This document shows positions 1,318-45,131 of a stretch of DNA of 48,686 bases, piece by piece. Within the stretch, counting starts at the first letter, position 1. Each line of letters starts with the position of its first letter. The notes beneath the pieces were generated by a model, which was not told the origin of the DNA, did not search any database, and saw nothing but the letters and a program-made list of their open reading frames with translations. The translations under genes and the position numbers were made by a program. Where the stretch lies: contig CANQBW010000001.1 of NCBI GenBank assembly GCA_947589565.1, positions 1 through 48,686 of the forward strand, given 5' to 3'. This stretch comes from an uncultured Clostridia bacterium. GTDB lineage: Bacteria; Bacillota; Clostridia; Christensenellales; Borkfalkiaceae.

Positions 1318-1359
1318 TTTCCTCGTCGAATTTATTCCGCAGGAAGAAATTCGACAAAA
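1318..1359 (-). repeat. Stop-codon hairpin element, copy 1 (after the MBL-fold gene)
   Basis: Read on the minus strand, it starts immediately after the TAG of the 1360-2430 gene. It has an outer stem GTCGAATTT/AAATTCGAC, an inner stem TTCC/GGAA with a TGC loop, and the conserved 3' flank CGAGGAAA. This stem sequence differs completely from copies 3, 4 and 8 yet remains paired. Confidence 0.7.
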
Positions 1360-2430
1360 CTATCTTTTAAAAATTTCGGAAGAGTAACTCCCCTCAACGG
1401 AAAAATTCTCTCCGTCGGAGCGAACGATGATGTTGCCGTTGCAGGAGGCAAAGTCCCAGTCCTTGTTTTCAAGGTCGATATTCGTTGCCTTCGTCGTCAC
1501 ATAAATTTTGTCCGTATACTTTAAGAGGCGTTCAAGCGTCTGTTTGGTCGGAAAGGTCTTGTCGGGATTCGCCGTGTATTCGGGCGAGCCCGCGCAGCAG
1601 CAGACGCAGACGTATTCGGGACGGATGACGGAGAGAAGCGCCTCCGTGCTCGAAGTCTTGCTGCCGTGATGTCCCGCCTTGTAAAGTTTACAGTGCGGAA
1701 GAGAGTTGTTCTTGACAAGTTCCCGCTCCCCGTCCTCTTCGAGGTCGCCCGTAAAGAGGTAGTTGTTCTCCCCTTGACTTATGTACATACAGACAGAGTA
1801 GTTGTTTTCATCATCCGAAGGATTCTCGTAATAATAATTGTAGAGGAAGTTCATGGAGACCCCCTCCGAAAGCTCGTAGCTGCGCTTTGCGCCGTCCTCG
1901 CCCTTCCAGCACTGCAAAGCGGTATAGTGGACGGCTCCCGCCTCCACTTCCAAGTCGCGCTCTTTGACGTAATTTTGATAGGTTTGCGTCGTCTTGTTGG
2001 TCTTTGGAAAGTCGATGATGGTCCTGCATTCGAATCTTTGAAAGAGACCGGGGTACGTCTTGTTTCCCGCGAACGCCGCGATGTGGTCCTGATCGGCATG
2101 GGTCACAATGACGTACTCGAGGACGCCGTCCGTGCAATAGGGCTTTACGTAAGTTTCGATGGTATCCGCCGAGCTTGCGCGGGAGCCGCCGTCGATGAGA
2201 ATATCGCAATCGCCGATCTTGACGAAGATACAGTCCCCCGTGTACTTGTTCCCGAGTTCCAAAAAGTGAATGGACAGCTCCCCCGTCTTGACGGTTCCGC
2301 CCGTGGGCGAAACAGGTTTATTCCGAAGAAAAAAGTACCAATACCCGACGGCTGCGACGGCCAAAAGAACGACGAGCGCGACGAGAAATGCGGTACTTTT
2401 CCTGGAAATTTTTCTCTTTTTTCTTCTCAT
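1360..2430 (-). CDS. Membrane-anchored metallo-beta-lactamase-fold protein (ComEC-like hydrolase domain)
   Basis: 356 residues. A basic N terminus and a membrane segment at about residues 13-36 place the rest outside the cell. The globular part is a metallo-beta-lactamase fold like the C-terminal domain of ComEC/Rec2: IHFLELGNKYTGD near 54-66, ILIDGG at 78-82, the metal motif THADQDH with His111, Asp113, Asp115 and His116, then FTGDLE and AGHHGS further on. Free-standing proteins of this type are common in Firmicutes and their substrates are mostly unknown; nucleic acid or phosphoester hydrolysis is only a possibility. It is the last gene of the mscS operon, starting 3 bp after the UAP gene's stop codon. 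Its own stop is followed directly by a stop-codon hairpin. Confidence 0.8.
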   Translation of the reverse strand: MRRKKRKISRKSTAFLVALVVLLAVAAVGYWYFFLRNKPVSPTGGTVKTGELSIHFLELGNKYTGDCIFVKIGDCDILIDGGSRASSADTIETYVKPYCTDGVLEYVIVTHADQDHIAAFAGNKTYPGLFQRFECRTIIDFPKTNKTTQTYQNYVKERDLEVEAGAVHYTALQCWKGEDGAKRSYELSEGVSMNFLYNYYYENPSDDENNYSVCMYISQGENNYLFTGDLEEDGERELVKNNSLPHCKLYKAGHHGSKTSSTEALLSVIRPEYVCVCCCAGSPEYTANPDKTFPTKQTLERLLKYTDKIYVTTKATNIDLENKDWDFASCNGNIIVRSDGENFSVEGSYSSEIFKR

Positions 2431-2433
2431 GTG

Positions 2434-3627
2434 TTAAATTTCAATATGATTCTTTCTCAAAAGTTCGCGGGCGGTGTCCACGCTGTCCACTCCCGTCGCG
2501 TTTTTGACGGGCGCGAACTCCTCCTCGCGAAGCGTCTCAAAGGGAAGACAGCTCTTCATCTCCCGCACCATGTCCAAAATCAAGGTTTCGAACTTGTAGG
2601 CATTCTCCCGGTCGGGGGTGACGATCCTCTCCCCGTCGAAGTAGGACACCTTCTTTTTGACGACGTGGACGGGCAGCTTCTCTCCCGCGATCTCCCTCAT
2701 GCGCTTTGCGGAAAAGAGGTAGTCGAGGGTCACGCCGAAGCGGTAGAGAAGTTCGCCGTTTTCATCGAGGCGCGAAGCGTTCTCCTTCTCCATTTCATAG
2801 TATTCGATGACCGAGGGTCTGCCCCCCTTCAGAACGAGCAGTCCCACTTTCTCCTCGGGATACCCCTTCTTGACCCCCTTGACCCCGCAATCCATTCCGT
2901 TTTGAATAGTCGCGCCCACAAAGACGGGATCGGCGGGCTTGACGAGGACATTGTCCACGCCGAAGATATTGAACCATTCGACGGCGGGGAACTCCTTCAA
3001 TAAATTCGAGCGAATGAGCGACCCATACCATCCCCCGTTGCCGTCGGGAGAGAGGGCGAGCTTTGCCCTGTCTTCCAGGAGCAAATTCCCCTCGAAGTCG
3101 ACGCAGGGCGCCATGTTTTGCGGGAAAAACTTGATAAATTCGGGGGGGTATCCGAAGAAATCGTGTGCTTTGAAAAATTCCTTGGTCATATCATGGTTCT
3201 TTTCGCTCGTCATGATGAGGAAGGGAATGTATGCCCCGACCTCTTCCGAGAGGGAAAGCAGCCGCTTGGTATGAAGTTCGAATATGTAGAGATTGCGGGT
3301 GACGCCGATATTGAACATGCCCTTCGGAAGAGAACTTCCGAGCCGCGTCCCTTGTCCTCCCGCGAGCAGCACCGCGGCGACTTTTCCATTTTTCAGAGCT
3401 TCTCTTCCCGTCCGGGCGTATTCTTCGCTTTTTTTCAGAATTTCCTCGTGGGAGAGGTAGGGAATGGGAGCAATTTCCTCGCTGTCCGAGGCGATCGCGA
3501 TTTCGTCCAAAACGGAAAAGTCCACCCCATCCAGCTGTTTTTCGAGGAAGAGCCGCTCTTCCTCCTTCAAATTCTCCAAATATTTTATGAGCCGCTGCTG
3601 ATGATATTTTTCAAGAAGTTCTCTCAT
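2434..3627 (-). CDS. UDPGP/UAP-type UTP:sugar-1-phosphate uridylyltransferase
   Basis: 397 residues, close to the length of UAP-type pyrophosphorylases, which make UDP-N-acetylhexosamine or another UDP-sugar from UTP and the sugar 1-phosphate. The nucleotide loop LAGGQGTRLGSSLPKG lies at residues 88-103, followed by a DGNGGWYGSL segment equivalent to the UAP sugar/uridine loop, and later GVDNVLVKPADP. It belongs to this eukaryote-like family and not to the bacterial GalU or GlmU type. The start ATG follows GGAAGGGTGAT and overlaps the upstream GH36-like gene by 4 bp (ATGA). The sugar specificity cannot be read from the sequence. Confidence 0.85.
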   Translation of the reverse strand: MRELLEKYHQQRLIKYLENLKEEERLFLEKQLDGVDFSVLDEIAIASDSEEIAPIPYLSHEEILKKSEEYARTGREALKNGKVAAVLLAGGQGTRLGSSLPKGMFNIGVTRNLYIFELHTKRLLSLSEEVGAYIPFLIMTSEKNHDMTKEFFKAHDFFGYPPEFIKFFPQNMAPCVDFEGNLLLEDRAKLALSPDGNGGWYGSLIRSNLLKEFPAVEWFNIFGVDNVLVKPADPVFVGATIQNGMDCGVKGVKKGYPEEKVGLLVLKGGRPSVIEYYEMEKENASRLDENGELLYRFGVTLDYLFSAKRMREIAGEKLPVHVVKKKVSYFDGERIVTPDRENAYKFETLILDMVREMKSCLPFETLREEEFAPVKNATGVDSVDTARELLRKNHIEI

Positions 3628-6302: not shown

Positions 6303-6390
6303 CCCTTTAACGCTTTTCGTAATACAGCCCTTTGTTCCCAATGAAAGGCGCGTTGGGAAATCACAATTTTCCATAAGCGCACTCAATTGG

Positions 6391-6501
6391 CGCCCCACAG
6401 GACGCACATTGTCGTGAAAGCGACCGTGAGAGTTATTTAATCAAGGCAAACGAGTTCATTTCCTCGACAAAAATATTGCGCAGCAAGATTTTTGCCGAAA
6501 C
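6391..6501 (-). repeat. Stop-codon hairpin element, copy 2 (after spoIVA), with distal module
   Basis: The core at 6458-6501, read on the minus strand, begins directly after the spoIVA TAG. It has TTTCG, an outer stem GGCAAAAAT/ATTTTTGTC, an inner stem TTGC/GCAA with a TGC loop, and CGAGGAAATGA. The distal module at about 6391-6430 has ggtcgctttcacgac and the acaatgtgcgtcctgtgggg string. Confidence 0.75.
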
Positions 6502-7968
6502 CTAAATCAGAATGCAGATGACTCCGCCCTTGCCTTCATTGACGATGCGGGTCACCGTGCGGCGCATCTTGCGCTGGACGTTCTCCGCCATCGAAATATT
6601 CTTGTGGTAGAGCTCCTCGCCGAGCATCTCGCGGAGGGTCTTGCCGAACATGTTCGTGTTCCAGGCGCGTTCGGGCTCCGTGTTGATGCCCTCGGAGAGG
6701 GTCTTGACGAAGGCGCGGCTCTGCTCCTCGTTGCCGAGGGCGGGGCTGACTTCGCCGCTCAGGTCGACGCGGATAATGTGATAGCTCGGCGCGTCCGCAT
6801 GGAGGTTGACCCCCACCCGACCGCTCTTTTTGACGACCTTGGGCTCGAGGAGGCTCATCTCCTCGTTGTCGGGCGGAACGATGCCGTAGCCGCACTCCTG
6901 CGCCTGACGGAACGCCTGACCCACTCTGTCGTACAGTTTTTTCGCCTTGGCGAGCGAAGAGACAAAGCTCATGAGCGCAAAATCGCTGTCGATGTTCTCC
7001 CCGCACTGCTTTCCGAGGATCTGATAGAAGGTCCCCTCTTTTGCCTGCACCCTTACGCTTGCGCGTCCCTCTGCGGGGAAGAGCTGCAGATCGACGGGCG
7101 GCAGCAGCTGCTCGCTCGTGGAGAAGAGTCCGTCGAGCAGGGCGCAGTCGCTCATCTTGTAGATTTTGGGAGCCAGCGTCCGTACCGAGGAGAGCACCTC
7201 CGAAATGAGCTCGTTGTCGGGTTCAAGAACGCGCATCCAGTCGGGAAGGTCGATGTCGATGCTCATGACGGGGAACTCATAGAGCACCCGTTCCAAGAGT
7301 GCGCCGATCTCCTCCGCCGTGAGTTTTTCCGCATTCGCGCTGACGACGGGAGCCGCATACTTCTCTTCGAGCTTTGCGCACAGTTCCCCCGCACTCTGCG
7401 GGTCACGGCAATTGAGTAAGATCACGAAGGGCTTGCCGATCTCCTTGAGCTCGCTCGCCGCCCGCTCCTCCGCCTCTTCATAGGCTTCGCGCGGAAGTCC
7501 CGTCACCGAGCCGTCGGACGTCACTAAAACGCCGATCGTCGAATGGTCGCGGATGACCCGCCTCGTCCCCTCCTCTGCCGCCTGTTCGAAGGGAACGGGC
7601 TCCTCGCTCCAAGGGGTTTTGACGAGCCGCGGCTGCCCCTCCTCTTCGAAGCCCGCCGCTCCCGCCACGGGGAAGCCCACGCAGTCGATGAGCCGCACTT
7701 TGACGCTCGTCTGACGGAAGTTGATCTGCGCCGCTTCCTCGGGCACAAATTTCGGCTCCGTCGTCATAACCGTCCGACCCGAACCCGACTGCGGGAGTTC
7801 GTCCGTCATGCGCTGTTTTTTGGCGCCCTCTGCCTGCGGCAGGACGAGCTCCTCTAAAAACCGCTTGATAAAGGTCGACTTGCCCGTGCGAACGGGACCC
7901 ACGACCCCTACATAAATCTCGCCGCCCGTCCGTGCGGCTATGTCCTCGTAAACGCTGTTGTAATCCAT
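6502..7968 (-). CDS. spoIVA: Stage IV sporulation protein A, spore coat morphogenetic ATPase
   Basis: 488 residues, against 492 in B. subtilis, and full length. SpoIVA binds and hydrolyses ATP and polymerises on the outer forespore surface to form the basement layer of the coat. The P-loop GPVRTGKSTF is at residues 24-33. The family segments MTTEPKFVPEEAA and VRLIDCVGFPVAG follow, and the C-terminal region, which anchors the protein to the forespore in B. subtilis, is present. The ATG is preceded by GGAGGCG. A sigma-E-like promoter lies 35-64 bp upstream, matching the mother-cell control known for this gene. It is transcribed alone. Its presence is the best evidence that the organism forms endospores. 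Confidence 0.97.
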   Translation of the reverse strand: MDYNSVYEDIAARTGGEIYVGVVGPVRTGKSTFIKRFLEELVLPQAEGAKKQRMTDELPQSGSGRTVMTTEPKFVPEEAAQINFRQTSVKVRLIDCVGFPVAGAAGFEEEGQPRLVKTPWSEEPVPFEQAAEEGTRRVIRDHSTIGVLVTSDGSVTGLPREAYEEAEERAASELKEIGKPFVILLNCRDPQSAGELCAKLEEKYAAPVVSANAEKLTAEEIGALLERVLYEFPVMSIDIDLPDWMRVLEPDNELISEVLSSVRTLAPKIYKMSDCALLDGLFSTSEQLLPPVDLQLFPAEGRASVRVQAKEGTFYQILGKQCGENIDSDFALMSFVSSLAKAKKLYDRVGQAFRQAQECGYGIVPPDNEEMSLLEPKVVKKSGRVGVNLHADAPSYHIIRVDLSGEVSPALGNEEQSRAFVKTLSEGINTEPERAWNTNMFGKTLREMLGEELYHKNISMAENVQRKMRRTVTRIVNEGKGGVICILI

Positions 7969-8036: not shown

Positions 8037-8220
8037 TTTCGAAGAAAATCTTTCGAACGAAATCTTTCCTTCGGAAATATTTACGTTCGAGGAAATGAGC
8101 TTTTATGCCTTGAATTACATGATCCTCTCGGTCGCTTTCACGACAATAAGCCGAAAGGGTTCGGCAAATGGGGTGCCGCTTATGGAAAATGCAATTTCCC
8201 AACGCGCCTTTCATTAGAAC
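8037..8220 (+). repeat. Stop-codon hairpin element, copy 3, with distal module and duplicated 5' arm
   Basis: The core at 8037-8096 reads TTTCGAAGAAAATC, then a second start TTTCGAACGAAATC, the inner stem TTTCC/GGAAA and ATTTACGTTCGAGGAAAT. The distal module (ggtcgctttcacgac) follows to about 8180. This copy is not next to a stop codon; it sits just upstream of the spoIVA promoter on the opposite strand. Nothing here looks coding. Confidence 0.7.
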
Positions 8221-8302: not shown

Positions 8303-8437
8303 CGTCGCGGGGTCCGGGACACACCGCAAGTGTCCCGGAATTTTTTTTGGTTACTTTTTTTGTATTCGTAAAAAAAGTAACAACGCTTGTCATGCGGAAA
8401 TGACAATCAAAAGCGATTGCGCTGTAAAAACCCGCCG
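8303..8437. repeat. Double-hairpin repeat, copy 1
   Basis: Hairpin 1 at 8314-8338 has arms CCGGGACAC/GTGTCCCGG and is followed by eight T residues, like an intrinsic terminator on the plus strand. Hairpin 2 at 8350-8381 has arms GTTACTTTTTTT/AAAAAAAGTAAC. A tail follows with gtcatgcgg and an aagcgattgcgct dyad. Almost the same 100 bp recurs at 19943-20046. Bases 8229-8262 also hold a fragment of the NATGACA repeat family. The gap 7969-8451 contains no gene. Confidence 0.8.
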
Positions 8438-16449: not shown

Positions 16450-16528
16450 TGAGAAAAAACGCGAAATCACTTGTTCTAAATAAACTGCGCGGAGCAGAAT
16501 CGCCATTCTGCGGTAGCGCCCCCTGTTT

Positions 16529-16644
16529 GCGCCCTACAGGACGCACATTGTCGTTTGAAACGAACGAGAGGACAAGTTTTGGGAACTCGAGAGTTCATTT
16601 CCTCGAACGTAAATATTTCCGAAGGAAAGATTTCGTTCGAAACC
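16529..16644 (-). repeat. Stop-codon hairpin element, copy 4 (after the cupin gene), with distal module
   Basis: The core at 16597-16644 begins four bases after the cupin TAA on the minus strand. It has TTTCG, an outer GAACGAAAT/ATTTACGTTC stem with one bulged A, an inner TTTCC/GGAAA stem with a TTC loop, and CGAGGAAATGA. A gggaactcgagagttc patch and the distal module with CGTTTCAAACG and the acaatgtgcgtcctg-type string lie beyond. Confidence 0.78.
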
Positions 16645-16646: not shown

Positions 16647-16967
16647 TTATGCGACTACGGCTATCATAATTAAAGGTTCGTCATAAATATTTTTGACGGT
16701 ATGCTGACTTCCCTTGGGGCAGTAGTGGCAGCAGCCGGGCCCCACTTCTTCCTCTCTTCCGTCGAGCATAAAATTCGCTCTTCCCGAGAGCACATAGAGT
16801 GCCTCGCAGTTATTTTCGTGGCGGTGGAGCCCGATGGAGCAGCCCTTTTCGAGGGTGAGGCGCATGAGCTTGACATCTCCGTCCGAAAAGCGGCGCGCCT
16901 TCACGACGCCCTCCCCGCCGCGCATGTTGGGAATGAGTTCTTCTTCGAGTGCGTTAAAATCAATCAT
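16647..16967 (-). CDS. Small single-domain cupin protein
   Basis: 106 residues forming one cupin barrel: GLHRHENNCEALYVLSGR contains the metal-binding His-x-His and Glu of cupin motif 1 near residues 46-63, and GPGCCHYCPKGSQHTVKN near 77-94 carries the motif 2 His. Such proteins bind a metal ion and act as isomerases, dioxygenases or ligand sensors; none of these can be chosen here. Its ATG overlaps the end of clpB by 8 bp (ATGATTGA), so it is made with clpB. That link to a heat-shock chaperone gene is unusual. A stop-codon hairpin follows its TAA. Confidence 0.85.
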   Translation of the reverse strand: MIDFNALEEELIPNMRGGEGVVKARRFSDGDVKLMRLTLEKGCSIGLHRHENNCEALYVLSGRANFMLDGREEEVGPGCCHYCPKGSQHTVKNIYDEPLIMIAVVA

Positions 16968-19942: not shown

Positions 19943-20080
19943 GCGTTGCGGGGTCCGGGACACATACGCAAGTGTCCCGGAATTTTTTTTGGTTACTTTT
20001 TTTGTATTCGTAAAAAAAGTAACAACGCCTGTCATGCGTCCATGACAAGGGTTAAGCGATTCCGCTTTTAAAAACCGCCC
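19943..20080. repeat. Double-hairpin repeat, copy 2
   Basis: Hairpin 1 at about 19955-19980 (CCGGGACAC/GTGTCCCGG, then T8) and hairpin 2 at 19992-20023 are nearly identical to 8303-8404. The tail has gtcatgcgtccatgac and an AAGCGATTCCGCTT dyad, which appears again at about 20103-20117. Bases 19896-19917 hold a fragment of the NATGACA repeat. The gap 19543-20139 has no gene. Confidence 0.8.
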
Positions 20081-20139: not shown

Positions 20140-21090
20140 TTAATATTTCCCCAAAATGGTAATTTTGATATCATACTCCCCATAGGAAAAGGAGAACTCG
20201 GCGAGGGTCACCTTGTCGCCCATGCGCTTCATGTGGATATTGACGGTGGAAATGTCCCCTTCGATCCCGAAGATGCGCTTTGCGATGTTCTTACTGAAGG
20301 ATGCCGTCAGCTCATCCTGCATGAAACTGATGATCGGCATATCGCGGAAATCCTTCAGGGAAAAGTCGAGCGCCTTTGCATAGCTGCCCGCAGTCGTTGA
20401 GGTCGAAGTGTTCTCCGTCTCCGTGTACGGGGTGTCCGAATCCAAACCGTTGAGCCGCTTTTCTTTCTGTTTACAGGTGTACTCCCCTTCCCCCTTGGTA
20501 TAGGTCTCCTCGAGGGTATAGACGACAAGGTTGCCGCTCGTGATCGAGATCGTCTTTTGGACTTCGCCCGCGTCCGAAAGCTTTGCCATGCCCTTTGCAA
20601 AGTCATTCACCGCGGCGCCGTACATCATGTTGAGCATCATCTCAAGATCGGGACCTAAACACAGGTTGTCGTCCGCGGAAGTGTCCTCGCTCGGTTTTTG
20701 ATCGTCGGGCTTTTGCTCTTGATCATCGGGTTTCGGTTGTTCCTGATCATCGGGCTTGGGCTGTTCCTGATCGTCGGGCTTAGGATCTTCCCGGTCGTTC
20801 GGCTTTTGCTCGTCGTCGGGATCTTCATCATCGGGATCAGGATTTTCCTCATCGGGCTTTGGATTTTCCTGCGGCTTTTGCTCGTCGTCGGGATTTTCAT
20901 CACCCGGATCGGGATTTTCATCATCGGGCTTTGGATTTTCCTGCGGCTTCTGCTCGTCGTTGGGCTTCTCTTGTTCGACGCCGGGTTCTGGGTTGTCGGG
21001 CTGTTTGCCCTCTTCCTTTCCGCAGGCGGCAAAGCAGAACAGGCTGAAGATCATGAGAAGCGATAAGAAAAGATTTGCAAATTTTTTCAT
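20140..21090 (-). CDS. Lipoprotein with a long acidic Pro/Glu/Asp/Gln/Lys repeat linker
   Basis: 316 residues. Signal peptide 1-21 with lipobox FAAC, lipid on Cys22. Residues about 28-140 are a low-complexity spacer of repeats such as NPDDEQKPQENPKPD and PKPDDQEQ (three in tandem), probably crossing the cell wall. Residues about 145-316 form an alpha/beta domain that I do not recognise, with many Thr/Ser strands (TISITSGNLVVYTLEETY, KVTLAEFSFSYGEYDIKI). AAAGGAC precedes the ATG. It starts 14 bp after the protease gene, so the two are co-transcribed, and the lipoprotein could be a surface partner, inhibitor or substrate of the protease. Confidence 0.8.
   Translation of the reverse strand: MKKFANLFLSLLMIFSLFCFAACGKEEGKQPDNPEPGVEQEKPNDEQKPQENPKPDDENPDPGDENPDDEQKPQENPKPDEENPDPDDEDPDDEQKPNDREDPKPDDQEQPKPDDQEQPKPDDQEQKPDDQKPSEDTSADDNLCLGPDLEMMLNMMYGAAVNDFAKGMAKLSDAGEVQKTISITSGNLVVYTLEETYTKGEGEYTCKQKEKRLNGLDSDTPYTETENTSTSTTAGSYAKALDFSLKDFRDMPIISFMQDELTASFSKNIAKRIFGIEGDISTVNIHMKRMGDKVTLAEFSFSYGEYDIKITILGKY
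20690..21000. repeat. Tandem coding repeats for the lipoprotein linker
   Basis: In-frame direct repeats encode PKPDDQEQ units and NPD-DEQKPQENPKP units. The copies are similar enough at DNA level for slippage to change the linker length. Confidence 0.75.
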
Positions 21091-22762: not shown

Positions 22763-22800
22763 GCCTCATATAACATTCTTCGCTCGGAATGACAGAAAGT

Positions 22801-22964
22801 GCGCCGTCCGATAAGCGGACGGCGCATTGCCCTTTGTTCTAAAATTACTGCGCGAGGCAAGGTTCCCTTGCCGGAGAGAAACGACTTTGACGACGGGGCT
22901 TTGAGAACTCGAGAGCTCATTTCCTCGACGAGAAAGATCGCGTAGCGAGCTTTTCGACGAAACC
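22801..22964 (-). repeat. GC-rich hairpin with shared tail, then stop-codon hairpin copy 5 (after the solute-binding protein gene)
   Basis: 22801-22825 is a perfect GCGCCGTCCG/CGGACGGCGC hairpin. The following 50 bp (ccctttgttctaaaa ... gcgaggcaaggttccc) recur at 27355-27405 behind the same hairpin. The core at 22919-22964 begins six bases after the TAA of the 22969-24237 gene on the minus strand. It has TTTCG, the inner stem TCGC/GCGA with a TAC loop, and CGAGGAAAT. Confidence 0.75.
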
Positions 22965-27294: not shown

Positions 27295-27329
27295 GTGAAT
27301 TAAACACCTGAAAAGCAAAAAACATGAAT

Positions 27330-27534
27330 GCGCCGTCCGCTTATCGGACGGCGCAATGCCCTTTGTTCTAAAAATACTTGCGCGAGGCAAGGTTCCCTTG
27401 CCGGAGCGGCACCCCATTTGCCGAACCCCTTCGGCTTATTGTCGTGAAAGCGACCGTGAGAGTTATTTAATCAAGGCAGAAAAGCCTATTTCCTCGAACG
27501 TAAATATTCCCGAAGGGAAGATTTCGTTCGAAAC
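27330..27534 (-). repeat. GC-rich hairpin with shared tail, distal module and stop-codon hairpin copy 6 (after the LRR lipoprotein gene)
   Basis: 27330-27354 is the GCGCCGTCCG hairpin, with the same tail as 22826-22875. The distal module (ggtcgctttcacgac type) lies at about 27420-27465. The core at 27488-27534 begins four bases after the TGA of the 27539-29350 gene. It has the outer stem of copy 4, but the inner stem is TTCCC/GGGAA in place of TTTCC/GGAAA, a paired change. Confidence 0.75.
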
Positions 27535-27538: not shown

Positions 27539-29350
27539 TCAGTCTCTTCTCTCCCACTCGCTGTCGGCGTAGAGGTAGCTGTCGGTGAGGAAGTCTGCGG
27601 CGCGGGAGGAATCGGAGACGTCGATGTTTGTCGCCGAGGAATGCCTGTTTGCGGTCACGCTCCAGCGCTTGTTCTGGAAGACGGCGTACTCGAGTCCGCT
27701 TCCCAAAAACGCCTTTTTCCCGATAAAACTTAAGGTAGCGGGAAAGCTGACGTTTTTGAGGGCGGTACAGTCGAGGAATGCCTGCTCGCGGATGACGGCG
27801 ACGCTTGCGCCGAAGGACACTTTTTCGAGCTTTTTACAGCGGGAGAAGGCAAACATGCCGATCTCGCGGAGGCTGTTCCCGATCCCAACGTAGAGCAGCT
27901 CCTCGCAGTCGTGGAAGGCGCTCTTGCCGAGCTCGGTCAAACTGTCGGGGAGAGTGACCTCGGTGAGTCCGTTGCAGCCGCCGAATGCGGAATCTCCGAT
28001 ATAGGCGACGCTCTCGGGAAAGATGACCTTGGTGAGCGACATGCACACGAGCATGGCGCCGCCTGCGATCAGCTCCGTCCCCGGTCTGATCTCCAGCTCC
28101 CCTTCGAAGGTGGGCCTTACCTTGAGAAGATATTTCCCGTTGTAGAGGACGTTTGCGTCCCAATTGTCCTGATTGTCGTAGTAGGCGGTGTTGTGAAAGG
28201 CGTTTTCGCCGATCTGAGTGAGAGTTTCGGGCAGGACGACCTGAGAAATTTTCGTACAGCCCTCAAACGCCTGCCTTCCGATCTCTTTGAGTTCGGGAGG
28301 AAGGGCGATCTCTTCGATGGCGCAGCCGAGGAAGGCGTAGTCGCCGATGCGGGTCACAGTCTCGGGGATCGCCGCCCTTTGCAGGCTCTTGCAGCCGTTA
28401 AAGACGGAATTTTCGATGGCGGAGAGAGAGGAAATGCAGACCTCTTGAATCTTTTCGCAGCCCGAGAAGGCGGACGCGCCGAGGGAAGTAAGTTTTTCCG
28501 TCGTTCGAAGGTCTTCGAGAAGGACGCAATTTTCAAAGGCGGACGCGCCGATGGAATGAAGGTTCTCCCCCACCTTCAAGGCGGGAAGACTGTGGCAGTT
28601 GTAAAATGCTTTCTCTCCCACGGAGAGAATGTCCGACTGCAGGACGACTTCCCCGAGGTTGACGCACTCCGAGAATGCGCCGTCCGAAAATGCGCTCATG
28701 TTGAGCCCGAAGGTCGCCTTTTTGAGGCTGTCCCAGTGTTCGAACGCCCGCTCGCCCACCGTTGTGACAGGCTTTTCCTGATAATAGGAAGGAACAAAGA
28801 GCTCCTCGACGTTGCGGTCGAGCCCCCCCTTGACAATATACTCCTGCGTCTCGGGATCAATATCGAAGATGAGCCCCTCCGTCGCCTTGGTGACGATGCC
28901 GCATTCGCAGACTTCGCCGTGGTCGGCGATCGCAAAGACTTCCTTGCACTCGTCGCAGATCTTCCAGTGCGAAGTGAGGTCTCTCAGCCAGACGTCGGAG
29001 GAATGCACATGCTTCTCCGGCTCCTTCTGTCCGCAGACGCAGAAGCCGTCAAGGTAGGAATGCTCTCCCTGCGCATAGGTCTTTTTACAGACCTTGCAGA
29101 GCTTCCAATGGGATTCTTCGTCTGCCTCCCATCGGTTCGAAGTATGCTCCTCTTTGTCGAACTCTTCCGAACAGAGCACGCAGATCTTCCAGTGGCTCGT
29201 GTTGTCGATCAGATAATTTTCGGAATAGTGGGCGTGCAGAAAGGGCTCCTTCTTCCCCTCGTCGTCTTCCTCGGGTTTGCAGGCAACTGCTCCCGCGAGA
29301 CATCCGATCAGAAGGACAAACAGAAGGCTTAAAAGGACTGTTTTTTTCAT
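27539..29350 (-). CDS. Lipoprotein with Cys/His-rich N-terminal repeats and LRR_5 (BspA-like) repeats
   Basis: 603 residues. Signal peptide with lipobox GAVAC, lipid on Cys24. Residues about 38-150 hold three repeats built on SHWKxCxxC (HWKICVLC, HWKLCKVC, HWKICDEC), each with further Cys/His (DGFCVCG, EVCECG), likely metal sites or disulfides. From about 190 on, at least ten LRR_5 repeats of the BspA kind occur (IGDYAFLGC, IGDSAFGGC, IGKKAFLGSG), giving a surface-exposed solenoid used by gut and oral bacteria for binding or adhesion. The ATG at 29350 follows AGGAGG by 8 bp. It lies just downstream of thrS with no clear promoter of its own. Confidence 0.88.
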   Translation of the reverse strand: MKKTVLLSLLFVLLIGCLAGAVACKPEEDDEGKKEPFLHAHYSENYLIDNTSHWKICVLCSEEFDKEEHTSNRWEADEESHWKLCKVCKKTYAQGEHSYLDGFCVCGQKEPEKHVHSSDVWLRDLTSHWKICDECKEVFAIADHGEVCECGIVTKATEGLIFDIDPETQEYIVKGGLDRNVEELFVPSYYQEKPVTTVGERAFEHWDSLKKATFGLNMSAFSDGAFSECVNLGEVVLQSDILSVGEKAFYNCHSLPALKVGENLHSIGASAFENCVLLEDLRTTEKLTSLGASAFSGCEKIQEVCISSLSAIENSVFNGCKSLQRAAIPETVTRIGDYAFLGCAIEEIALPPELKEIGRQAFEGCTKISQVVLPETLTQIGENAFHNTAYYDNQDNWDANVLYNGKYLLKVRPTFEGELEIRPGTELIAGGAMLVCMSLTKVIFPESVAYIGDSAFGGCNGLTEVTLPDSLTELGKSAFHDCEELLYVGIGNSLREIGMFAFSRCKKLEKVSFGASVAVIREQAFLDCTALKNVSFPATLSFIGKKAFLGSGLEYAVFQNKRWSVTANRHSSATNIDVSDSSRAADFLTDSYLYADSEWERRD

Positions 29351-29388
29351 CGATCGCACCTCCTCATTTTTTTCGGCGGAATGCCGGG

Positions 29389-37282: not shown

Positions 37283-37319
37283 AGTGGTATTATCCCTTAG
37301 ATATGAGCGAGGAAAAAGC

Positions 37320-39743
37320 ATGGACAGAAAGGCCGTCGAAAAAAAGTGGCAGCTGAAATGGGAAAAGGCGAAATTTCATAATTTCAATCCGAAGAGCGAC
37401 AAGCCGAAGGAGTACGTCCTCGAGATGTTCTCCTATCCTTCGGGCGCAAAGCTTCATGTGGGGCACTGGTACAACTACGGCCCCGCCGATTCCTATGCCC
37501 GTTTCAAGCGGATGAAGGGCTACAACGTCTTTCAGCCCATGGGCTTTGACGCTTTCGGACTCCCCGCCGAGAACTATGCCATCAAGACGGGCGTCCATCC
37601 CAAGGATTCCACAAAGACGAACATCGAGACGATGGAAAAACAGCTCCGCGCGATGGGCGCCATGTTTGATTGGAACGCCGAAGTCAAGACCTGCGAGGAA
37701 AAGTACTACAAGTGGACGCAGTGGCTCTTTTTACAGCTCTACAAGAAGGGTCTCGCCTACCGAAAGGAGGCTCCCGTCAACTGGTGCCCCTCCTGCAACA
37801 CCGTGCTTGCCAACGAACAGGTCGTCGAGGGCGCCTGCGAACGCTGCGGAACAACGGTTGTCCGCAAAAACTTGACGCAGTGGTTCTTCAAGATCACCGA
37901 GTACGCCGAAGAGCTCTTGAGCGGGCTCGACGGGCTCGATTGGCCCGAAAAGACGAAGACCATGCAGAAGAACTGGATCGGAAAGTCCACGGGCTGCGAG
38001 ATCGAGTTCGAGTGCGACACGGGGGATAAAATTCGCGTCTACACCACCCGCTGCGACACCGTGTTCGGGGTGACCTATGTGGTGCTCGCGCCCGAACATC
38101 CCCTCGCGCAGAAGATCACGACGGACGAGCAGCGGGACGCCGTCAACGCCTACATCGCGGAGACCTCCAAGGCGAACGAGATCGACCGCCTCTCGACGAC
38201 CCGCGAGAAGACGGGCGTGTTTACGGGCGCCTATTGCACGAATCCCTTGAGCGGGAAGAAAATTCCCATCTATCTTGCCGACTACGTCCTCTATTCCTAC
38301 GGCACGGGCGCGGTGATGGCAGTTCCCGCGCACGACGAGAGAGACTTTGAGTTTGCGACAAAGTATGATCTTCCCATCGTGCAGGTCATCGAGAGCAGGA
38401 GCGGGCCCACAAAGCTTCCCTTCTGCGAGGACGGGATCATGGTCGGCTCCCTCGGATTCGACGGGCTCTACGGCGAAGAGGCGCGGGAGAAGGTCGCAAA
38501 TGAGATCGCGAAGCTCGGCAAGGGCGGCAAAAAGGTCAACTACCGTCTGCGCGACTGGCTCGTCTCCCGTCAGCGCTATTGGGGGGCGCCCATTCCCGTC
38601 GTCCATTGCCCCAATTGCGGCATCGTCCCCGTTCCCGAAAAAAATCTTCCCGTCGCCCTCCCCTATGAGGTCGAGTTCCGTCCCGACGGAAAGTCCCCCC
38701 TCGAAAAATGCGAGGAGTTCATGAACACGACCTGCCCGCAGTGCGGCGGCGAAGCGCGGCGGGATCCCGACACGTTGGACACCTTTGTCTGCTCGAGCTG
38801 GTATTTCCTGCGCTATGCGGACCCCGACAACGACAAGGAGCCCTTCGACGTCGAAAAAGTCAAGAAACTTCTCCCCGTCGACACCTATGTGGGCGGCGCG
38901 GAGCACGCCTGTATGCACCTTTTATACGCCCGCTTCATCACAAAGGCGCTCAGGGATATGGGCTATCTCAACTTCGGCGAGCCCTTCAAGCGGCTCATTC
39001 ATCAGGGCGTCATCATGGGCCCCGACGGGAACAGAATGTCCAAATCACATGGAAATATCGTCTCCCCCGATGAGTACATCGAGGAGTACGGCTCCGACGC
39101 CTTCCGCCTCTATCTCATGTTCGGCTTCTCCTACACGGAGGGCGGCCCCTGGAACGACGACGGGATCAAGGCGATCTCCAAATTCCTGGATAAAATCGAG
39201 AAGACCATCCTCAAGATCATGACCTATTCGGAGAAGAATGCCCCCTACTCGACGGAGGAAAAGGCGCTCGACTATGCGCGGAACTTCGCCATTCAAAAGA
39301 TCACGCGGGACATGCAGAACTTCTCCTTCAACACCGCCGTCGCGCGAATGATGGAACTTCTGAACGCCATCACAAAGTATGACGCGCTCGACGTCAAGAA
39401 CACGACGCTCTTAAAGGCGACCGTCAAGGACTTTTTGCTACTTCTCGCCCCCTGCGCTCCCCACTTCTGCGAGGAACTCTGGGAGCAAATCGGCGAAAAG
39501 GGCTTCATCTTCGAGAGAAGCTACCCCGTGGAAAATCCCGAAAAACTCGTCCTCGACGAGACGGAGTACGCCCTTCAGATCAACAGCAAGATCATCTCCC
39601 GCGTCATGATCCCCTCCTCTTTCAAGCAGGAAGAGATTCAAGACTTTGTCTTGGGACTTGACTCGGTAAAGGAAAAACTCGACGGAAAGGAAGTCAAAAA
39701 GTGCATCGTCGTCCAAGGACGGCTTGTAAACCTGATTGTTTAA
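37320..39743 (+). CDS. leuS: Leucyl-tRNA synthetase
   Basis: 807 residues, the bacterial length. [16 protein letters not shown] near 45-60 is the HIGH-motif region, and NRMSKSHGN near 574 is the KMSKS loop. The CP1 editing domain (about 220-410) and paired zinc-type Cys motifs ([25 protein letters not shown]) are present. The ATG at 37320 follows GAGGAAAAA, and the start matches the conserved N terminus. It charges tRNA-Leu and is monocistronic, with its own promoter. A stop-codon hairpin abuts its TAA and an intrinsic terminator follows 65 bp later. Confidence 0.97.
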
Positions 39744-39788
39744 TTTCGACGAAAATCTTGCTGCGCAATATTTATCGTCGAGGAAATG
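39744..39788 (+). repeat. Stop-codon hairpin element, copy 7 (after leuS)
   Basis: Begins immediately after the leuS TAA: TTTCGACGAAAATC, inner stem TTGC/GCAA with a TGC loop, ATTTATCGTCGAGGAAATG. The outer stem is GACGAAAAT/ATTTATCGTC. This is a plus-strand copy; five of the seven other stop-adjacent copies shown here differ from it in stem sequence. Confidence 0.78.
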
Positions 39789-39808
39789 GGCTCGTGCCTT
39801 CAACGCAA

Positions 39809-39843
39809 AGCGAATCGGAAAAACTTCTCCGATTCGCTTTTTG
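39809..39843 (+). terminator. Intrinsic terminator of leuS
   Basis: 11-bp stem AGCGAATCGGA/TCCGATTCGCT (39809-39819 and 39828-39838) followed by TTTTG. Confidence 0.85.
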
Positions 39844-39920: not shown

Positions 39921-40108
39921 CCTCTATCGACCGAGGGGATCCCTCGATTCCGCTTCGCTCCACTCGGAATGACATGGGGTACCTGTCATCCTGAGCGGAG
40001 TGGCGTGTAGCCACGGAGTCGAATGGATCCCCCTAAGATAAAGGACGAGATTCTTCGACGACGGCACCCCGCGGCGATAGCCGCGGGGTGCCTGCTCAGA
40101 ATGACAGA
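39921..40108. repeat. NATGACA hairpin repeats, three copies
   Basis: Copies at about 39925-39975 and 39980-40032 face each other (cggaatgacatg / ctgtcatcctgagcgg). A third at about 40050-40108 has ttcgacgac, then the perfect stem GGCACCCCGCGGC/GCCGCGGGGTGCC, then tgctcagaatgacag. Confidence 0.7.
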
Positions 40109-40169
40109 GGAAAAACTAAAATAATGTGTGCGAGCAAAACCACGCTTTTGCGCTGCACGACCCTGTTTG

Positions 40170-40284
40170 CGAGCCACCGCACGCTTGTTGTCGTTTGAAA
40201 CGAACGAGAGGACCAAGTTATGGGAACTCGAAAGTAAATTTCCTCGAACGCAAATATTTCCGAAGGAAAGATTTCGTTCGAAAT
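40170..40284 (-). repeat. Stop-codon hairpin element, copy 8 (after the ATP-grasp gene), with distal module
   Basis: The core at 40238-40284 begins one base after the TAA of the 40285-41121 gene on the minus strand. The stems are those of copy 4 except for one A-to-G change. The distal module with CGTTTCAAACG lies near 40188-40215. Confidence 0.75.
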
Positions 40285-41121
40285 TTAATACATCTCTTTA
40301 TAAATGTGTCTCGCATATTCTCCTGCGACATCGGTCTTTGTGACTTCTTCGAACTTTTGGAAGAATGCGTTCGAATTGACTTCGCAGAGGAGCATTCCCT
40401 CTCTTCCCCAAAGAAGGTCGATCCCGCAGTAGTCGAGCTTGAGATGTTCAGCCGTCTTTTCGCACAGTTTCCGCTCCTCTTCCCCCAAGGGGTAGGCTCT
40501 ACAGACGCCGCCGAGTTCTGCGTTCGAGCGGAAATCGCTCTTCGAGGAGCGCTCCATCGCGGCGATCGCCTTGCCGCCCACGACGATGACGCGGAGGTCC
40601 CTTCCCGCACTTTCCCGAATAAATTCCTGATACAGGTGGGGCTTTAGACGAAGTTCTCTCGAGAGAGAGACAAGCTCCCCTTCGTCCTTTGCAAGATAGA
40701 CCTGCCTTCCGAGCGAGCCGAAACTCTCCTTGACGACGACGGGAAATCCGAGCTTTTTGACGCTATCCAAAAGTTCCTCGGAGAGCGGGCTGTCGGGCGT
40801 ATAACAGAGGAGCGACGGAACAGTCTTCGGCATGGGGACGACCCCCTCGAGGGAAAGATAGGTCAAATATTTGTCGTCGCACACCTCGATCGCCTCGGCG
40901 CGGTCAAAAAGGCGCATCTTTTTCTCGAGCGTTTGTGCCGCATAGCGGTCCTTGTCGAGGAAAATGCAGAAGTCCCCCTCGATTTCCCGAAGGTTCGGTC
41001 CGTTCGGAATGACAGTTATCGTGACGCCGAGCGGCAAAAAAGCCTCTTTCAAGCGTTTCACCCGGTGCATTTCGCCCGGGTGATTGCTGTAGGCATTGAT
41101 CAGAATGACGCCTTGTTTCAT
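40285..41121 (-). CDS. RimK-type ATP-grasp ligase
   Basis: 278 residues. The fold order is that of RimK/LysX-like alpha-L-glutamate ligases: an N-terminal Rossmann-like part, LGFPVVVKESFGSLGRQVYLAKDE near 130-153 (the ATP-grasp loop and Lys), QEFIRESAGRDLRVIVVGGKAIAAMER near 175-201 and CGIDLLWGREGMLLCEVNSN near 240-259 (metal-binding Asp, Glu and Asn). Such enzymes add amino acids to a carboxylate on a protein, cofactor or small molecule. The substrate is unknown. The ATG at 41121 lies 4 bp after the hom stop codon with no strong ribosome binding site, so it is likely translated by coupling. Confidence 0.85.
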   Translation of the reverse strand: MKQGVILINAYSNHPGEMHRVKRLKEAFLPLGVTITVIPNGPNLREIEGDFCIFLDKDRYAAQTLEKKMRLFDRAEAIEVCDDKYLTYLSLEGVVPMPKTVPSLLCYTPDSPLSEELLDSVKKLGFPVVVKESFGSLGRQVYLAKDEGELVSLSRELRLKPHLYQEFIRESAGRDLRVIVVGGKAIAAMERSSKSDFRSNAELGGVCRAYPLGEEERKLCEKTAEHLKLDYCGIDLLWGREGMLLCEVNSNAFFQKFEEVTKTDVAGEYARHIYKEMY

Positions 41122-41125
41122 AAGT

Positions 41126-42382
41126 TTAAATGACGCGGAGCAAACTCTCCGTCTTGGCAAGCTGCCGTTCCTCGATTTTGGCGATGACAGACTTGATCAC
41201 AGACTCCTTCGTCTCGTGCGTGATGACAAGAAGTTCTCCCTCGCTCTCGCGATGAATGAATTTTTGGATGGCAACTCCCTTCTGCGTGAAGAGGGACAAA
41301 ACCTTCGAGGTCGTTCCTTCGATTTGAAAGCGCAGGAAGTACTTGCTCGAAAAATCCGTAATGACTTTGACGTTCTTGTTTGCGATCTCGGGGTGTTTGA
41401 ACGCCGTGGAGATATCCTCGTAATGGTTGGCGGCGAACAGCACGTCCGAGACGATGGCGCTCCCCGAAGGCAGCGCCCCCGCGCCCCTTCCGCTCAAGAG
41501 AACGTCTCCCACCGAGTCGCCCGTCAAAAACATCGCATTATAGCTCCCGTTGACGCCCGCGAGCGGGTGTTCCTTGGGAACGAGCGCGGGATGCACGCGG
41601 ACTTCCACGCTGTCCTCACGACGTTTTCCGATCGCGAGCAGTTTAATGCAGTAGCCGAGGTCCTTTGCGCAGCGGAAGTCCTCCTCCGTGATGCGCGTAA
41701 TGCCCTCGCGGTAGATCTTTTCGACGGGAATTTTGGTCTGGAAGGAGAGCGAGGCGAGAATGGAGAGCTTATAGACGGCGTCATAGCCCTCGAGGTCGTA
41801 CTCCTCGTCCGCCTCGGCAATGCCGATCTTGTGGACTTTTTCGAGAATTTCCTCAAAGGTCCCCCGCTGTTCGCTGAGTTCCGAGAGAATGTAGTTCGTC
41901 GTGCCGTTGACGATGCCGACGAAGGACGTGATGACGTTCGCCTGAAGCCCGCTCATGAGCGTCCGCACGACGGGAACGCCGCCCATGCAGCTCGCCTCGA
42001 GGTGGAGCCCCGCGTTGTAACGCTTTGCGACGCGCTCGAGCTCTTCGGAATGCTTTGCATAGAGCAATTTATTGGAAGTGACGACCGTCTTTCCCGCACG
42101 GAGCGCGGCAAGCACATACTCCCGCGCCGCCTCCGTGCCGCCGATACACTCCACGACGATGTTGACGTCGGGATTCATGACGACTTCGGCGATGTTGGAA
42201 GCGACCTTCTCCTCTTCCACGCCGAGCGCCTTGATCTTCTCCTCGTCGCACTCGAGGACGCTCTCGACCACAAGATCGAGGTTCTGCGTCTTCTGATAAA
42301 ATTCTCTGTGTTCGGTGATGGTCTTGTAGGTGCCTCCGCCTACGACGCCCAGCCCGAGCAAAGCAACTCCGACCTTCCTCAT
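41126..42382 (-). CDS. hom: Homoserine dehydrogenase with C-terminal ACT domain
   Basis: 418 residues, a monofunctional bacterial enzyme. It reduces aspartate semialdehyde to homoserine for threonine and methionine. The nucleotide loop LGLGVVGGGTY is at 9-19, NGTTNYIL near 170 and EADEEYDLEGYDAVYKLSILA near 197-217 are family signatures, and an ACT domain at about 345-418 (FLRFQIEGTTSKVLSLFTQKG-type start) should give feedback control by an amino acid, probably threonine. It overlaps coaX by 4 bp, an unusual partner; asd, its substrate source, lies 27 kb away. Confidence 0.95.
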   Translation of the reverse strand: MRKVGVALLGLGVVGGGTYKTITEHREFYQKTQNLDLVVESVLECDEEKIKALGVEEEKVASNIAEVVMNPDVNIVVECIGGTEAAREYVLAALRAGKTVVTSNKLLYAKHSEELERVAKRYNAGLHLEASCMGGVPVVRTLMSGLQANVITSFVGIVNGTTNYILSELSEQRGTFEEILEKVHKIGIAEADEEYDLEGYDAVYKLSILASLSFQTKIPVEKIYREGITRITEEDFRCAKDLGYCIKLLAIGKRREDSVEVRVHPALVPKEHPLAGVNGSYNAMFLTGDSVGDVLLSGRGAGALPSGSAIVSDVLFAANHYEDISTAFKHPEIANKNVKVITDFSSKYFLRFQIEGTTSKVLSLFTQKGVAIQKFIHRESEGELLVITHETKESVIKSVIAKIEERQLAKTESLLRVI

Positions 42383-43167: not shown

Positions 43168-43170
43168 ACT

Positions 43171-44054: not shown

Positions 44055-44118
44055 AATTAGAATCGGCGGCGGAGAAAAAATTCTACATACCCGCAGCCGA
44101 TGAAAAAAGGAGGAAATT

Positions 44119-44322: not shown

Positions 44323-44350
44323 CGCCCTTCCCGCCGTTTGAGGAAAAGAT

Positions 44351-44376
44351 GCGCCGCGCTACTTTTAGCGCGGCGC
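44351..44376. terminator. Hairpin terminator of the mini-protein gene
   Basis: Perfect 11-bp stem GCGCCGCGCTA/TAGCGCGGCGC with a CTTT loop, followed by AATTTGTT. The T run is weak, but the position just after the gene suits a terminator. Confidence 0.7.
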
Positions 44377-44387
44377 AATTTGTTAAG

Positions 44388-44430
44388 TTTCGGCAAAAAT
44401 CTTCCTGCGAAATCTTTCGTTCGAGGAAGG
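44388..44430 (+). repeat. Stop-codon hairpin element, copy 9 (behind the mini-protein terminator)
   Basis: TTTCGGCAAAAATCTTCC, loop, then AAATC, TTTCGTTCGAGGAAG. It looks like a recombinant: the 5' arm is of the copy 2 type and the 3' arm of the copy 4 type, so the outer stem no longer pairs well. A NATGACA repeat follows at 44425-44466. Confidence 0.6.
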
Positions 44431-44544
44431 CCGAGGGGATTCCTCGACTACGCTCGGAATGACACGTTAAATAAAATGCGATATCGACGGGACGTTCCTT
44501 AAATCCCAAGGTGCGAGCAGGGTTTCCCTGCGCTGCACGACTCA

Positions 44545-44676
44545 ATTTGCGCCCCACGGGACGCACATTGTTGTTTGAAACGAACGAGACGACCAAGCGG
44601 TGGGAACTCGAGAGCCTATTTCCTCGACGATAAATATTCCGAAGGAAGATTTTCGTCGAAAGATTTCGTTCGAAAC
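44545..44676 (-). repeat. Stop-codon hairpin element, copy 10 (after the thioesterase gene), with distal module
   Basis: The core at 44618-44676 begins one base after the thioesterase TAA. As in copy 3, the 5' arm is doubled (TTTCGAACGAAATC, then TTTCGACGAAAATC). The inner stem is TTCC/GGAA and the 3' arm ATCGTCGAGGAAAT pairs with the second 5' arm. The distal module is at about 44548-44595. The gap 44323-44676 contains only repeats and the terminator. Confidence 0.75.
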
Positions 44677-45066
44677 TTACAGGTTTTTTCTCTTTTCCTC
44701 AAGTTTCGAAAGAAATTTTTGGTTGTCGATGACAAAGCGCTCGTGGGTGCCCTCGCCGAGAAGCTCCTTTTCGTCGTAGACTTTGACGGTGAAGACGAGC
44801 CGTCTTCTGTCAACTTCGACAAGTTCGCTCTCGCAGGTCACCTTGCAGCCGACAAAGGTCGAGGCGAGATGGCGGATGTTGACGGCAGTCCCCACCGTGC
44901 TCTCCCCCTCTTTGAGATAGGGCTCGACGGAGCGGCGGGAGGTCTCCTCCATGAATTGGATCAAGCAGGGCGTTGCGAAGACGGGCAGCAGCCCGCTCGA
45001 GAGATGTTCCGCCGTCATTTCCTCCGTGACGATCCGTTCGAGTTTTCCTTTGATTCCGATTTGCAT
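44677..45066 (-). CDS. Hotdog-fold acyl-CoA thioesterase, fluoroacetyl-CoA thioesterase-like
   Basis: 129 residues, a single hotdog domain. LLPVFATPCLIQFMEETSRR near 26-45 and GESTVGTAVNIRHLAST near 53-69 match the FlK-like thioesterase group (conserved Thr, Glu and His in these segments). Members hydrolyse short acyl-CoA thioesters; fluoroacetyl-CoA is the substrate only in specialised producers, so a housekeeping role is more likely here. GGAGAAAT precedes the ATG. It is a single-gene unit flanked by stop-codon hairpins on both sides. Confidence 0.88.
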   Translation of the reverse strand: MQIGIKGKLERIVTEEMTAEHLSSGLLPVFATPCLIQFMEETSRRSVEPYLKEGESTVGTAVNIRHLASTFVGCKVTCESELVEVDRRRLVFTVKVYDEKELLGEGTHERFVIDNQKFLSKLEEKRKNL

Positions 45067-45084
45067 ATATTTCTCCTAATATTA

Positions 45085-45131
45085 TTTCGTCGAAAAGCTC
45101 GCTTTGCGATCTTTCTCGACGAGGAATTTTC
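45085..45131 (+). repeat. Stop-codon hairpin element, copy 11 (upstream of the thioesterase gene)
   Basis: TTTCGTCGAAAAGC, inner stem TCGC/GCGA with a TTT loop, then CTTTCTCGACGAGGAA. The outer TCGTCGA/TCGACGA stem pairs here, whereas the otherwise similar copy 5 has a mismatch. This copy is not next to a plus-strand stop codon. Confidence 0.65.

What the first reader, a model, noticed from the sequence alone, without database searches (positions are those of the whole stretch)
1318..45131. Hairpin family that starts at stop codons and keeps its stems by paired changes
Seen directly: eleven copies share TTTCG at the 5' side and CGAGGAAA at the 3' side but differ in the stems between. Inner stems are TTCC/GGAA (copies 1, 10), TTGC/GCAA (2, 7), TTTCC/GGAAA (3, 4, 8), TTCCC/GGGAA (6) and TCGC/GCGA (5, 11). 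Outer stems change likewise (GAACG/CGTTC, GACG/CGTC, GTCGAA/TTCGAC). Eight copies (1, 2, 4, 5, 6, 7, 8, 10) begin 0-6 nt after a stop codon, six or more unrelated genes being involved, on either strand. That position and the covariation suggest an RNA-level role (3'-end protection, termination without a U run, or ribosome release) or an element that targets stop codons. I know no named family that fits.
Basis: partly seen in the sequence, partly recalled or inferred. Interest (0 to 1): 0.9.

Follow-up and report, generated by a model that had tools for sequence, protein, structure and literature searches.

The report
Stop-codon-hugging folded repeat in gut Clostridia
A bacterium of an uncultured Clostridia genus carries about a hundred or more copies of a folded repeat, more than half of which begin within seven letters of the end of a gene and which keep their hairpins by paired changes, much like the REP and BOX repeats of other bacteria.

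Summary
The 42-45 nt hairpin (P1) has 11 copies in the window and at least 97 in the genome, and is only the first module of a modular element of about 170 nt. A whole-element model finds it in 65 of 73 genomes of the genus and, weakly, in 1 of 48 others of the order. P1 and P3 covary strongly (97.4% of cells paired). 55 of 97 P1 copies start 0-7 nt after a stop codon, against 35 of 3534 random non-coding positions and 0 of 63 copies of another repeat. Of 54 testable copies none has its tail within 20 nt of a stop, so orientation is fixed. At spoIVA, 24 of 28 relatives have an intrinsic terminator in that slot; element-bearing ends here have one in 2 of 55, but element-free ends of this genome also only in 3 of 11. 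Which molecule is folded is not shown, and no mobilising enzyme was found. Best reading: a REP/BOX-like, non-autonomous 3'-UTR element with an RNA-level consequence; a new variant of a known kind. Stop proximity itself is known for REPs.

The parts
1272..1359 (-). copy 1, truncated; P1 1318-1359, starts 0 nt after the stop of gene 1360-2430(-)
6346..6500 (-). copy 2, near-complete element; P1 6459-6500, 1 nt after the stop of spoIVA 6502-7968(-)
8051..8209 (+). copy 3, near-complete element; P1 8051-8095, preceded by a partial P1 5' arm; not behind a same-strand stop
16485..16642 (-). copy 4, near-complete element; P1 16598-16642, 4 nt after the stop of a cupin gene 16647-16967(-)
22848..22962 (-). 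copy 5, shortened element (lacks the usual P3 part); P1 22920-22962, 6 nt after the stop of gene 22969-24237(-)
27378..27533 (-). copy 6, near-complete element; P1 27489-27533, 5 nt after the stop of gene 27539-29359(-)
39744..39839 (+). copy 7, P1 plus a different downstream part; P1 39744-39786, 0 nt after the stop of leucyl-tRNA synthetase 37284-39743(+)
40126..40283 (-). copy 8, near-complete element; P1 40239-40283, 1 nt after the stop of gene 40285-41160(-); convergent with copy 7, so each of the two genes has its own element
44388..44509 (+). copy 9, degenerate hybrid P1 44388-44429 with unpaired outer arms
44509..44661 (-). copy 10, near-complete element; complete P1 44619-44661 starts 15 nt after the stop of gene 44677-45066(-), the gap being a second P1 5' arm of another subtype
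45085..45191 (+). copy 11, truncated; P1 45085-45127 lies upstream of the start of the divergent gene 44677-45066(-)

Best explanation
A genus-specific, non-autonomous interspersed repeat of the REP/BOX sort that lives as the beginning of the 3'-untranslated region of the gene upstream. Shown: about 170 nt, modular; P1 and P3 held by compensatory changes and P4 foldable; P1 the end that faces the gene; in 55 of 97 copies 0-7 nt behind the stop; at the one gene compared closely (spoIVA) it sits where relatives have an intrinsic terminator; many copies per genome, mostly at non-orthologous genes. Inferred: the copies are transcribed with the upstream gene, so a row of hairpins starts inside or just behind the footprint of the terminating ribosome, blocks 3'-to-5' decay and sets or delays the transcript's 3' end; sense copies at gene ends are kept (or made) because the element works, or is tolerated, only in that direction; copies spread and are homogenised within a genome by an unidentified recombination or transposition route.
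For: Covariation: P1 in this genome 99.1% of cells paired, 9 of 18 pairs with double changes, score 0.383 against 0.111 shuffled and at most 0.073 slid; P1+P3 in 56 elements, 33 of them from relatives, 97.4%, 11 of 18, 0.566 against 0.135 shuffled and at most 0.105 slid. Position: 55 of 97 at 0-7 nt; relatives 22 of 53; controls 0 of 63 and 35 of 3534. Orientation: 0 of 54 tails within 20 nt of a stop. Terminator slot: 24 of 28 relatives of spoIVA have a stem within 120 nt of the stop, against 2 of 55 element-bearing stops here; 18 of 55 have one at 140-290 nt. Genus-wide: 65 of 73 genomes. Movement: 29 of 29 relatives shown lack it behind spoIVA; only 3 of 30 relatives' element-bearing genes match a G000 element-bearing gene at over 60% identity; tandem units 168-174 nt apart.
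Against: No clear strand asymmetry: 17 G-T against 10 A-C mismatches, antisense folds as well as sense, so RNA is not proven. 38 of 97 copies are not at a stop by my test (8 at a divergent gene's start, 7 behind another element, 23 other), so stops are preferred, not obligatory; 31 of 97 have no called stop within 300 nt. Terminators look scarce at element-free ends of this genome too: 3 of 11, so displacement of terminators is not cleanly shown. P2 is not supported. No expression data exist here.
Confidence: 0.47

Rival explanations
1. Purely selfish mobile DNA (REP/MITE-like). It lands anywhere and survives mainly in the few untranslated bases between stop codon and terminator stem, where it harms least; hairpins are kept because the unknown mobilising machinery recognises folded single-stranded DNA.
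For: At spoIVA, terminator stems begin 6-46 nt after the stop in 22 of the 24 relatives that have one, so the tolerated gap is short; no evident motif in the gap; nested and tandem copies; both strands fold about equally.
Against: Tolerance predicts both orientations, yet 0 of 54 testable tails are near a stop. Insertions beyond terminators should be common, but by eye only two of the copies printed follow one. No Y1 transposase, reverse transcriptase or TnpB domain was found in this genome.
Confidence: 0.3
2. A mobile terminator: the element replaces the gene's intrinsic terminator and ends transcription itself, without a U tract, perhaps with Rho acting on the pyrimidine-rich linker.
For: At least 35 of 55 element-bearing ends had no recognised terminator in the two stretches scanned, 0-120 nt from the stop and 140-290 nt from P1. 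The convergent genes of window copies 7 and 8 each own a copy. Linker 65% pyrimidine; 55 of 56 have more YC steps on the sense strand than on the other.
Against: No U tract behind P1; YC count of the linker (8.7) is near the random mean of 7.7; the Rho targets described for B. subtilis include stretches over 150 nt with excess C (PMC13323073, passages seen); presence of rho was not tested; some copies are followed by a terminator-like hairpin; only 3 of 11 element-free ends here have a terminator within 120 nt.
Confidence: 0.15
3. Recombination site of a gene-cassette system (attC-like), which would also sit right behind stop codons.
For: Position behind stops; folded structure; three tyrosine-recombinase domains in the genome.
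Against: Copies lie on both strands behind unrelated chromosomal genes, not in one array of cassettes; core-site motifs (recalled) were not seen by eye, no scan was run; the recombinases were not identified further.
Confidence: 0.03

Closest known systems
REP elements / BIMEs (GTAG- and CGTC-tagged palindromes)
   Same: High-copy extragenic palindromes; subfamilies with alternative complementary stem bases; mostly behind genes, in two species shown often under 20 bp from the 3' end; CGTC families also lack a dedicated transposase (PMC3733652: passages and section 15 seen).
   Different: P1 is 42-45 nt in the window with no GTAG/CGTC tag and is part of a 170-nt multi-hairpin element with one fixed orientation; the lineage is Clostridia, and the word 'Firmicutes' does not occur in that paper's main text; no Y1 transposase found in this genome.
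BOX elements of Streptococcus pneumoniae
   Same: Modular interspersed repeats in a Firmicute, foldable as RNA, transcribed as 5' or 3' extensions of operons (PMC3049150: passages seen).
   Different: No sequence comparison was run; BOX has terminal inverted repeats that resemble an IS and a variable number of boxB units; here the order of modules is constant and P1 abuts stop codons.
E. coli REPs within 15 nt of a stop codon
   Same: Reported to stall ribosomes and trigger mRNA decay by trans-translation (Liang et al. 2015, not held; known here from a citing sentence in PMC5082802).
   Different: Function untested here; this element is longer, and no sequence comparison was run.
Stop-proximal intrinsic terminators of Firmicutes
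   Same: Same slot, a few nt behind the stop (PMC7858274, one passage seen).
   Different: A repeated family without a U tract behind P1.

Membership tests
REP (GTAG/CGTC superfamilies) | 20-40 bp palindrome with an unpaired GTAG or CGTC tag at one end | tested here: not met
   P1 sequences: TTTCG...CGAGGAAA ends, no such unpaired tag (read by eye)
REP | High copy number, extragenic, near 3' ends of genes | tested here: met
REP | Subfamilies with alternative complementary stems | tested here: met
REP | Linked RAYT (Y1) transposase | tested here: not met
   PF01797: none in G000, 15 of 61 in the genus; of 16 Y1 loci looked at, one (G002) has an element nearby
BOX element | Ordered, swappable modules and foldable sequence | tested here: met
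   (alternative modules in fixed order)
BOX element | boxA/B/C sequences, terminal inverted repeats | not tested
   no sequence comparison with BOX was run
Intrinsic terminator | GC-rich stem followed by a U tract | tested here: not met
   2 of 55 element-bearing stops have such a site within 120 nt
Any Rfam family | Covariance-model match | tested here: not met
   0 matches in the window; in 4 loci one match far below its cut-off
Group II intron / retroelement product | Reverse transcriptase in the host | tested here: not met
   PF00078: none in G000, 6 of 37 genus genomes
TnpB/omega-RNA element | TnpB-type protein in the host | tested here: not met
   PF07282: none in G000; IscB was not searched
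Structured RNA | Strand-specific G-U tolerance | tested here: inconclusive
   17 G-T against 10 A-C in 73 P1 forms; folding z about equal on both strands
Integron attC site | Core sites cut by an integron integrase, in a cassette array | not tested
   no motif scan or integrase typing; only tyrosine-recombinase domains were counted

The most novel reading that the evidence does not exclude
A mobile 3'-end module: a repeat that moves through a genome by taking the terminator slot of gene after gene, always in the sense direction, and then sets termination or stability of those mRNAs, spread by machinery (or by the transcript itself) that is none of Y1 transposase, reverse transcriptase or TnpB.
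Probability: 0.18. Interest if true: 0.85.

Novelty: new variant of a known kind. Interest (0 to 1): 0.6.

Why it matters
It is a REP/BOX-like system in an uncultured Clostridia genus with dozens of species, many of them with 20 or more copies (where 24 candidates per genome were scored), so the old question whether such repeats are kept for an RNA function or are only tolerated parasites becomes testable. The handles are unusually clean: fixed orientation, 0-7 nt spacing from the stop, and, at least at one gene, the place of the intrinsic terminator. If functional, it would be a repeat that rewires the 3' ends of a large set of genes at once.

Tried and rejected
Rfam: nothing over its cut-off. 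Strict P1+M2 pattern: only in this genome, 0 of 100 relatives; too narrow, since the structure model finds the genus. Y1_Tnp, RT and TnpB as mobilisers: not found in this genome; of 16 Y1 loci in relatives one has an element nearby. Target motif in the stop-to-P1 gap: none evident. The element supplying the stop codon: rejected, SpoIVA ends at the same residue in relatives without it. G-T against A-C asymmetry and sense/antisense folding as proof of RNA: inconclusive. P2 hairpin: not supported. Rho site in the linker: weak (its 'relatives' rows hold 24 of the 33 relatives because of a label filter of mine). First terminator scan (16 of 59 element ends, 5 of 39 control ends) used doubtful control ends and was replaced. 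First spoIVA parse read 12 of 30 loci; one search reads all 30. Viral contigs: 0.

Weak points. Gene ends were called with a codon score trained on 24 window ORFs, not a gene finder, and the same score was used for relatives. The genome searches scored at most 97 (R1) or 24 (R2) candidates per genome, so copy numbers are floors. A1 used 45 of the 52 copies found; the 7 dropped (window copies 1, 9, 11 and four others) are the degenerate or oddly flanked ones, and A1 members were picked by their ends. A3 used 33 of 51 pattern matches from relatives (36 passed my trimming) and 23 of 41 units of this genome. The random positions come from the window only. Two small palindrome patterns did give one hit each at 0-7 nt (CATAGTACTATG 1 of 11, GTACTATGY 1 of 12); the other patterns gave 0 of 63, 25, 12, 47 and 26 (the last is the element's own tail).
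Full report
OBSERVATION. The eleven hairpins exist at the stated places. Seven complete hairpins begin 0-6 nt after a stop codon (ORF table); the eighth claimed (copy 10) does so through a duplicated 5' arm. Pfam names eight unrelated upstream genes.

WHAT IT REALLY IS. The hairpin (P1) is followed in fixed order by a TGAGCT-like box, a pyrimidine-rich linker with two main alternatives, hairpin P3 with several alternative stems, hairpin P4 with at least four alternatives, and a tail near TTTAGAACAAAGGGC, about 165-180 nt from P1 in most single units. Alternatives are mixed between copies, so the element is a mosaic. P1 itself comes in discrete subtypes; the commonest six (outer arm, inner hairpin) account for 58 of 97 genome hits. 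In five of 97 copies a 5' arm of one subtype runs directly into a whole P1 of another.

NUMBER AND RANGE. The P1 model R1 gave 97 hits in this 1.594-Mb genome, with all 97 scored candidates matching, so the true number is higher. R1 hit 23 of 37 genomes of the genus, own included, and 0 of 24 genomes of other genera. The whole-element model R2 hit 65 of 73 genomes of the genus, own included, and 1 of 48 others of the order, with 3 weak hits.

STRUCTURE. For 45 of the 52 P1 copies then in hand (39 distinct rows) 99.1% of cells pair and 9 of 18 pairs show double changes; covariation 0.383 against 0.111 in shuffles and at most 0.073 in slid controls. For 56 elements, 33 from relatives, P1 and P3 together give 97.4%, 11 of 18 and 0.566 against 0.135 and at most 0.105; there the number of pairs with a double change and the number of pair types are not beyond shuffles (115 and 238 of 500 reach them). 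P4 folds in the examples printed, but only 21 of 56 fall below z -2. P2 is not supported. The rows are related, so the counts overstate independent events. Whether RNA or DNA is the folded molecule is open: G-T mismatches do not clearly outnumber A-C (17 to 10, 6 other, in 73 forms), and both strands fold alike (z -3.2 and -3.6; sense energy lower in 36 of 56).

POSITION. 55 of 97 P1 copies start 0-7 nt behind a stop of a coding frame; four more start at 15-16 nt with a partial P1-like arm in the gap; seven lie at 50-279 nt; 31 have no called stop within 300 nt. Stops among the 59 nearest copies are TAA 40, TAG 11, TGA 8, and the gap has no evident motif. Of the other 38 of 97, 8 lie 11-40 nt from the start codon of a divergent gene, 7 follow another element and 23 are other; by eye two of these 23 also lie at a divergent start and two behind a terminator. 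Controls: 35 of 3534 random non-coding window positions; TGTCATYCYGAGCG repeats 0 of 63, TGTCATKTTGAGCG 0 of 25, GC-rich hairpins 0 of 12 and 0 of 47, CATAGTACTATG palindromes 1 of 11 (GTACTATGY 1 of 12). In relatives 22 of 53 lie at 0-7 nt, and in a looser set 30 of 63 within -3 to 20 nt. The other end behaves differently: of 54 copies with a recognised tail and enough sequence beyond, none has an opposite-strand stop within 20 nt. That argues strongly against simple tolerance of insertions in either direction. In the 59 stop copies the next gene was co-directional in 18, convergent in 7 and not within the stretch held in 34.

TERMINATOR SLOT. Behind spoIVA, 29 of 29 relatives shown lack the element by eye; R2 gives one weak match there (L131, 15.5 bits), which looks like that gene's terminator. 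A scan finds a terminator stem within 120 nt of the stop in 24 of 28 of them, against 2 of 55 element-bearing stops here; 18 of 55 have one at 140-290 nt from P1. Against this: of 11 confident stops of this genome without P1, only 3 have a terminator within 120 nt, though by eye some of those 11 may not be true gene ends. So the element takes the slot where relatives keep a terminator, a few nt behind the stop as described for B. subtilis (PMC7858274, one passage seen), but that it displaced one at most genes is not shown.

TURNOVER. Behind an mgtE-type gene (Pfam) 32 of 33 loci could be read past the stop. R2 places an element directly at the stop in five (G105 the query, G111, G024, G007 and this genome; one search read against the coordinates); four more (G006, G112, G050, G101) show P1-like remnants by eye; 23 show none. 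The five carry different P1 stems, so either the site was filled more than once or copies are homogenised within each genome. Among 30 relatives' genes with an element close behind the stop, three match a G000 gene that has one, at 67-79% identity; about one would be expected by chance if some 1500 genes are assumed (and my estimate), so positions are at most weakly conserved. Tandem units stand 168-174 nt apart.

MECHANISM. Shown: the structure of P1 and P3, the fixed orientation, the stop-proximal place, the genus-wide spread and the low positional conservation. Inferred: co-transcription with the upstream gene, protection or setting of the mRNA 3' end, and selection for the sense direction. 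Unknown: what moves it. Y1 transposase, reverse transcriptase and TnpB domains were not found in this 93%-complete genome; three tyrosine-recombinase domains are present. A Rho site in the linker is at best a weak lead.

COMPARISON AND NOVELTY. REPs are known to lie close behind genes, to have subfamilies with complementary stem changes, and in the CGTC families to lack a transposase (PMC3733652: passages and section 15 seen). BOX elements are modular and transcribed (PMC3049150: passages seen). E. coli REPs within 15 nt of a stop are reported to stall ribosomes (citing sentence in PMC5082802 seen; the original is not held). This element works like, but is not a tested member of, those families: no GTAG/CGTC tag, no Y1 gene in this genome, a longer ordered architecture, and a lineage not named in that REP paper's main text. 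Searches listed no description of it (titles and abstract starts seen); most subscription papers are not held, so it may still be in print. I file it as a new variant of a known kind.

Noticed in passing
window 8325-8406 and 19967-20048: A second repeat family, 95% identical over 82 nt, with long T and A runs around a palindrome; a variant with a different stem follows copy 2.
   Followed up: no
window 22800-22828, 27327-27355 and many G000 loci after the element tail: A GC-rich hairpin of the type GCAATGCGCCG...CGGCGCATT often follows the tail at nearly constant spacing; it may be a fifth module or a terminator.
   Followed up: partly
window about 1221-1245, 39981-40005 and elsewhere: A TGTCATYCYGAGCG... 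repeat family is abundant between genes; it served as a control and was not seen 0-7 nt behind a stop (0 of 63).
   Followed up: partly
L047 1501-1584, L048 1501-1578, L068 92-166: In three relatives' copies the P1 loop holds an extra GC-rich hairpin, so the P1 arms stay paired around an insert.
   Followed up: no
L209 (G002:C20), Y1 part 986-1216, element P1 about 1812-1857: A partial Y1 transposase match lies about 600 nt from an element copy, the only one of 16 Y1 loci looked at where this is so.
   Followed up: partly
G100 (same order, other genus): Three weak whole-element matches, best E 1.7e-5, the only hits outside the genus; not inspected.
   Followed up: no
window 20694-20939: Direct repeats of about 24 and 72 nt inside ORF 20140-21090(-).
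   Followed up: no
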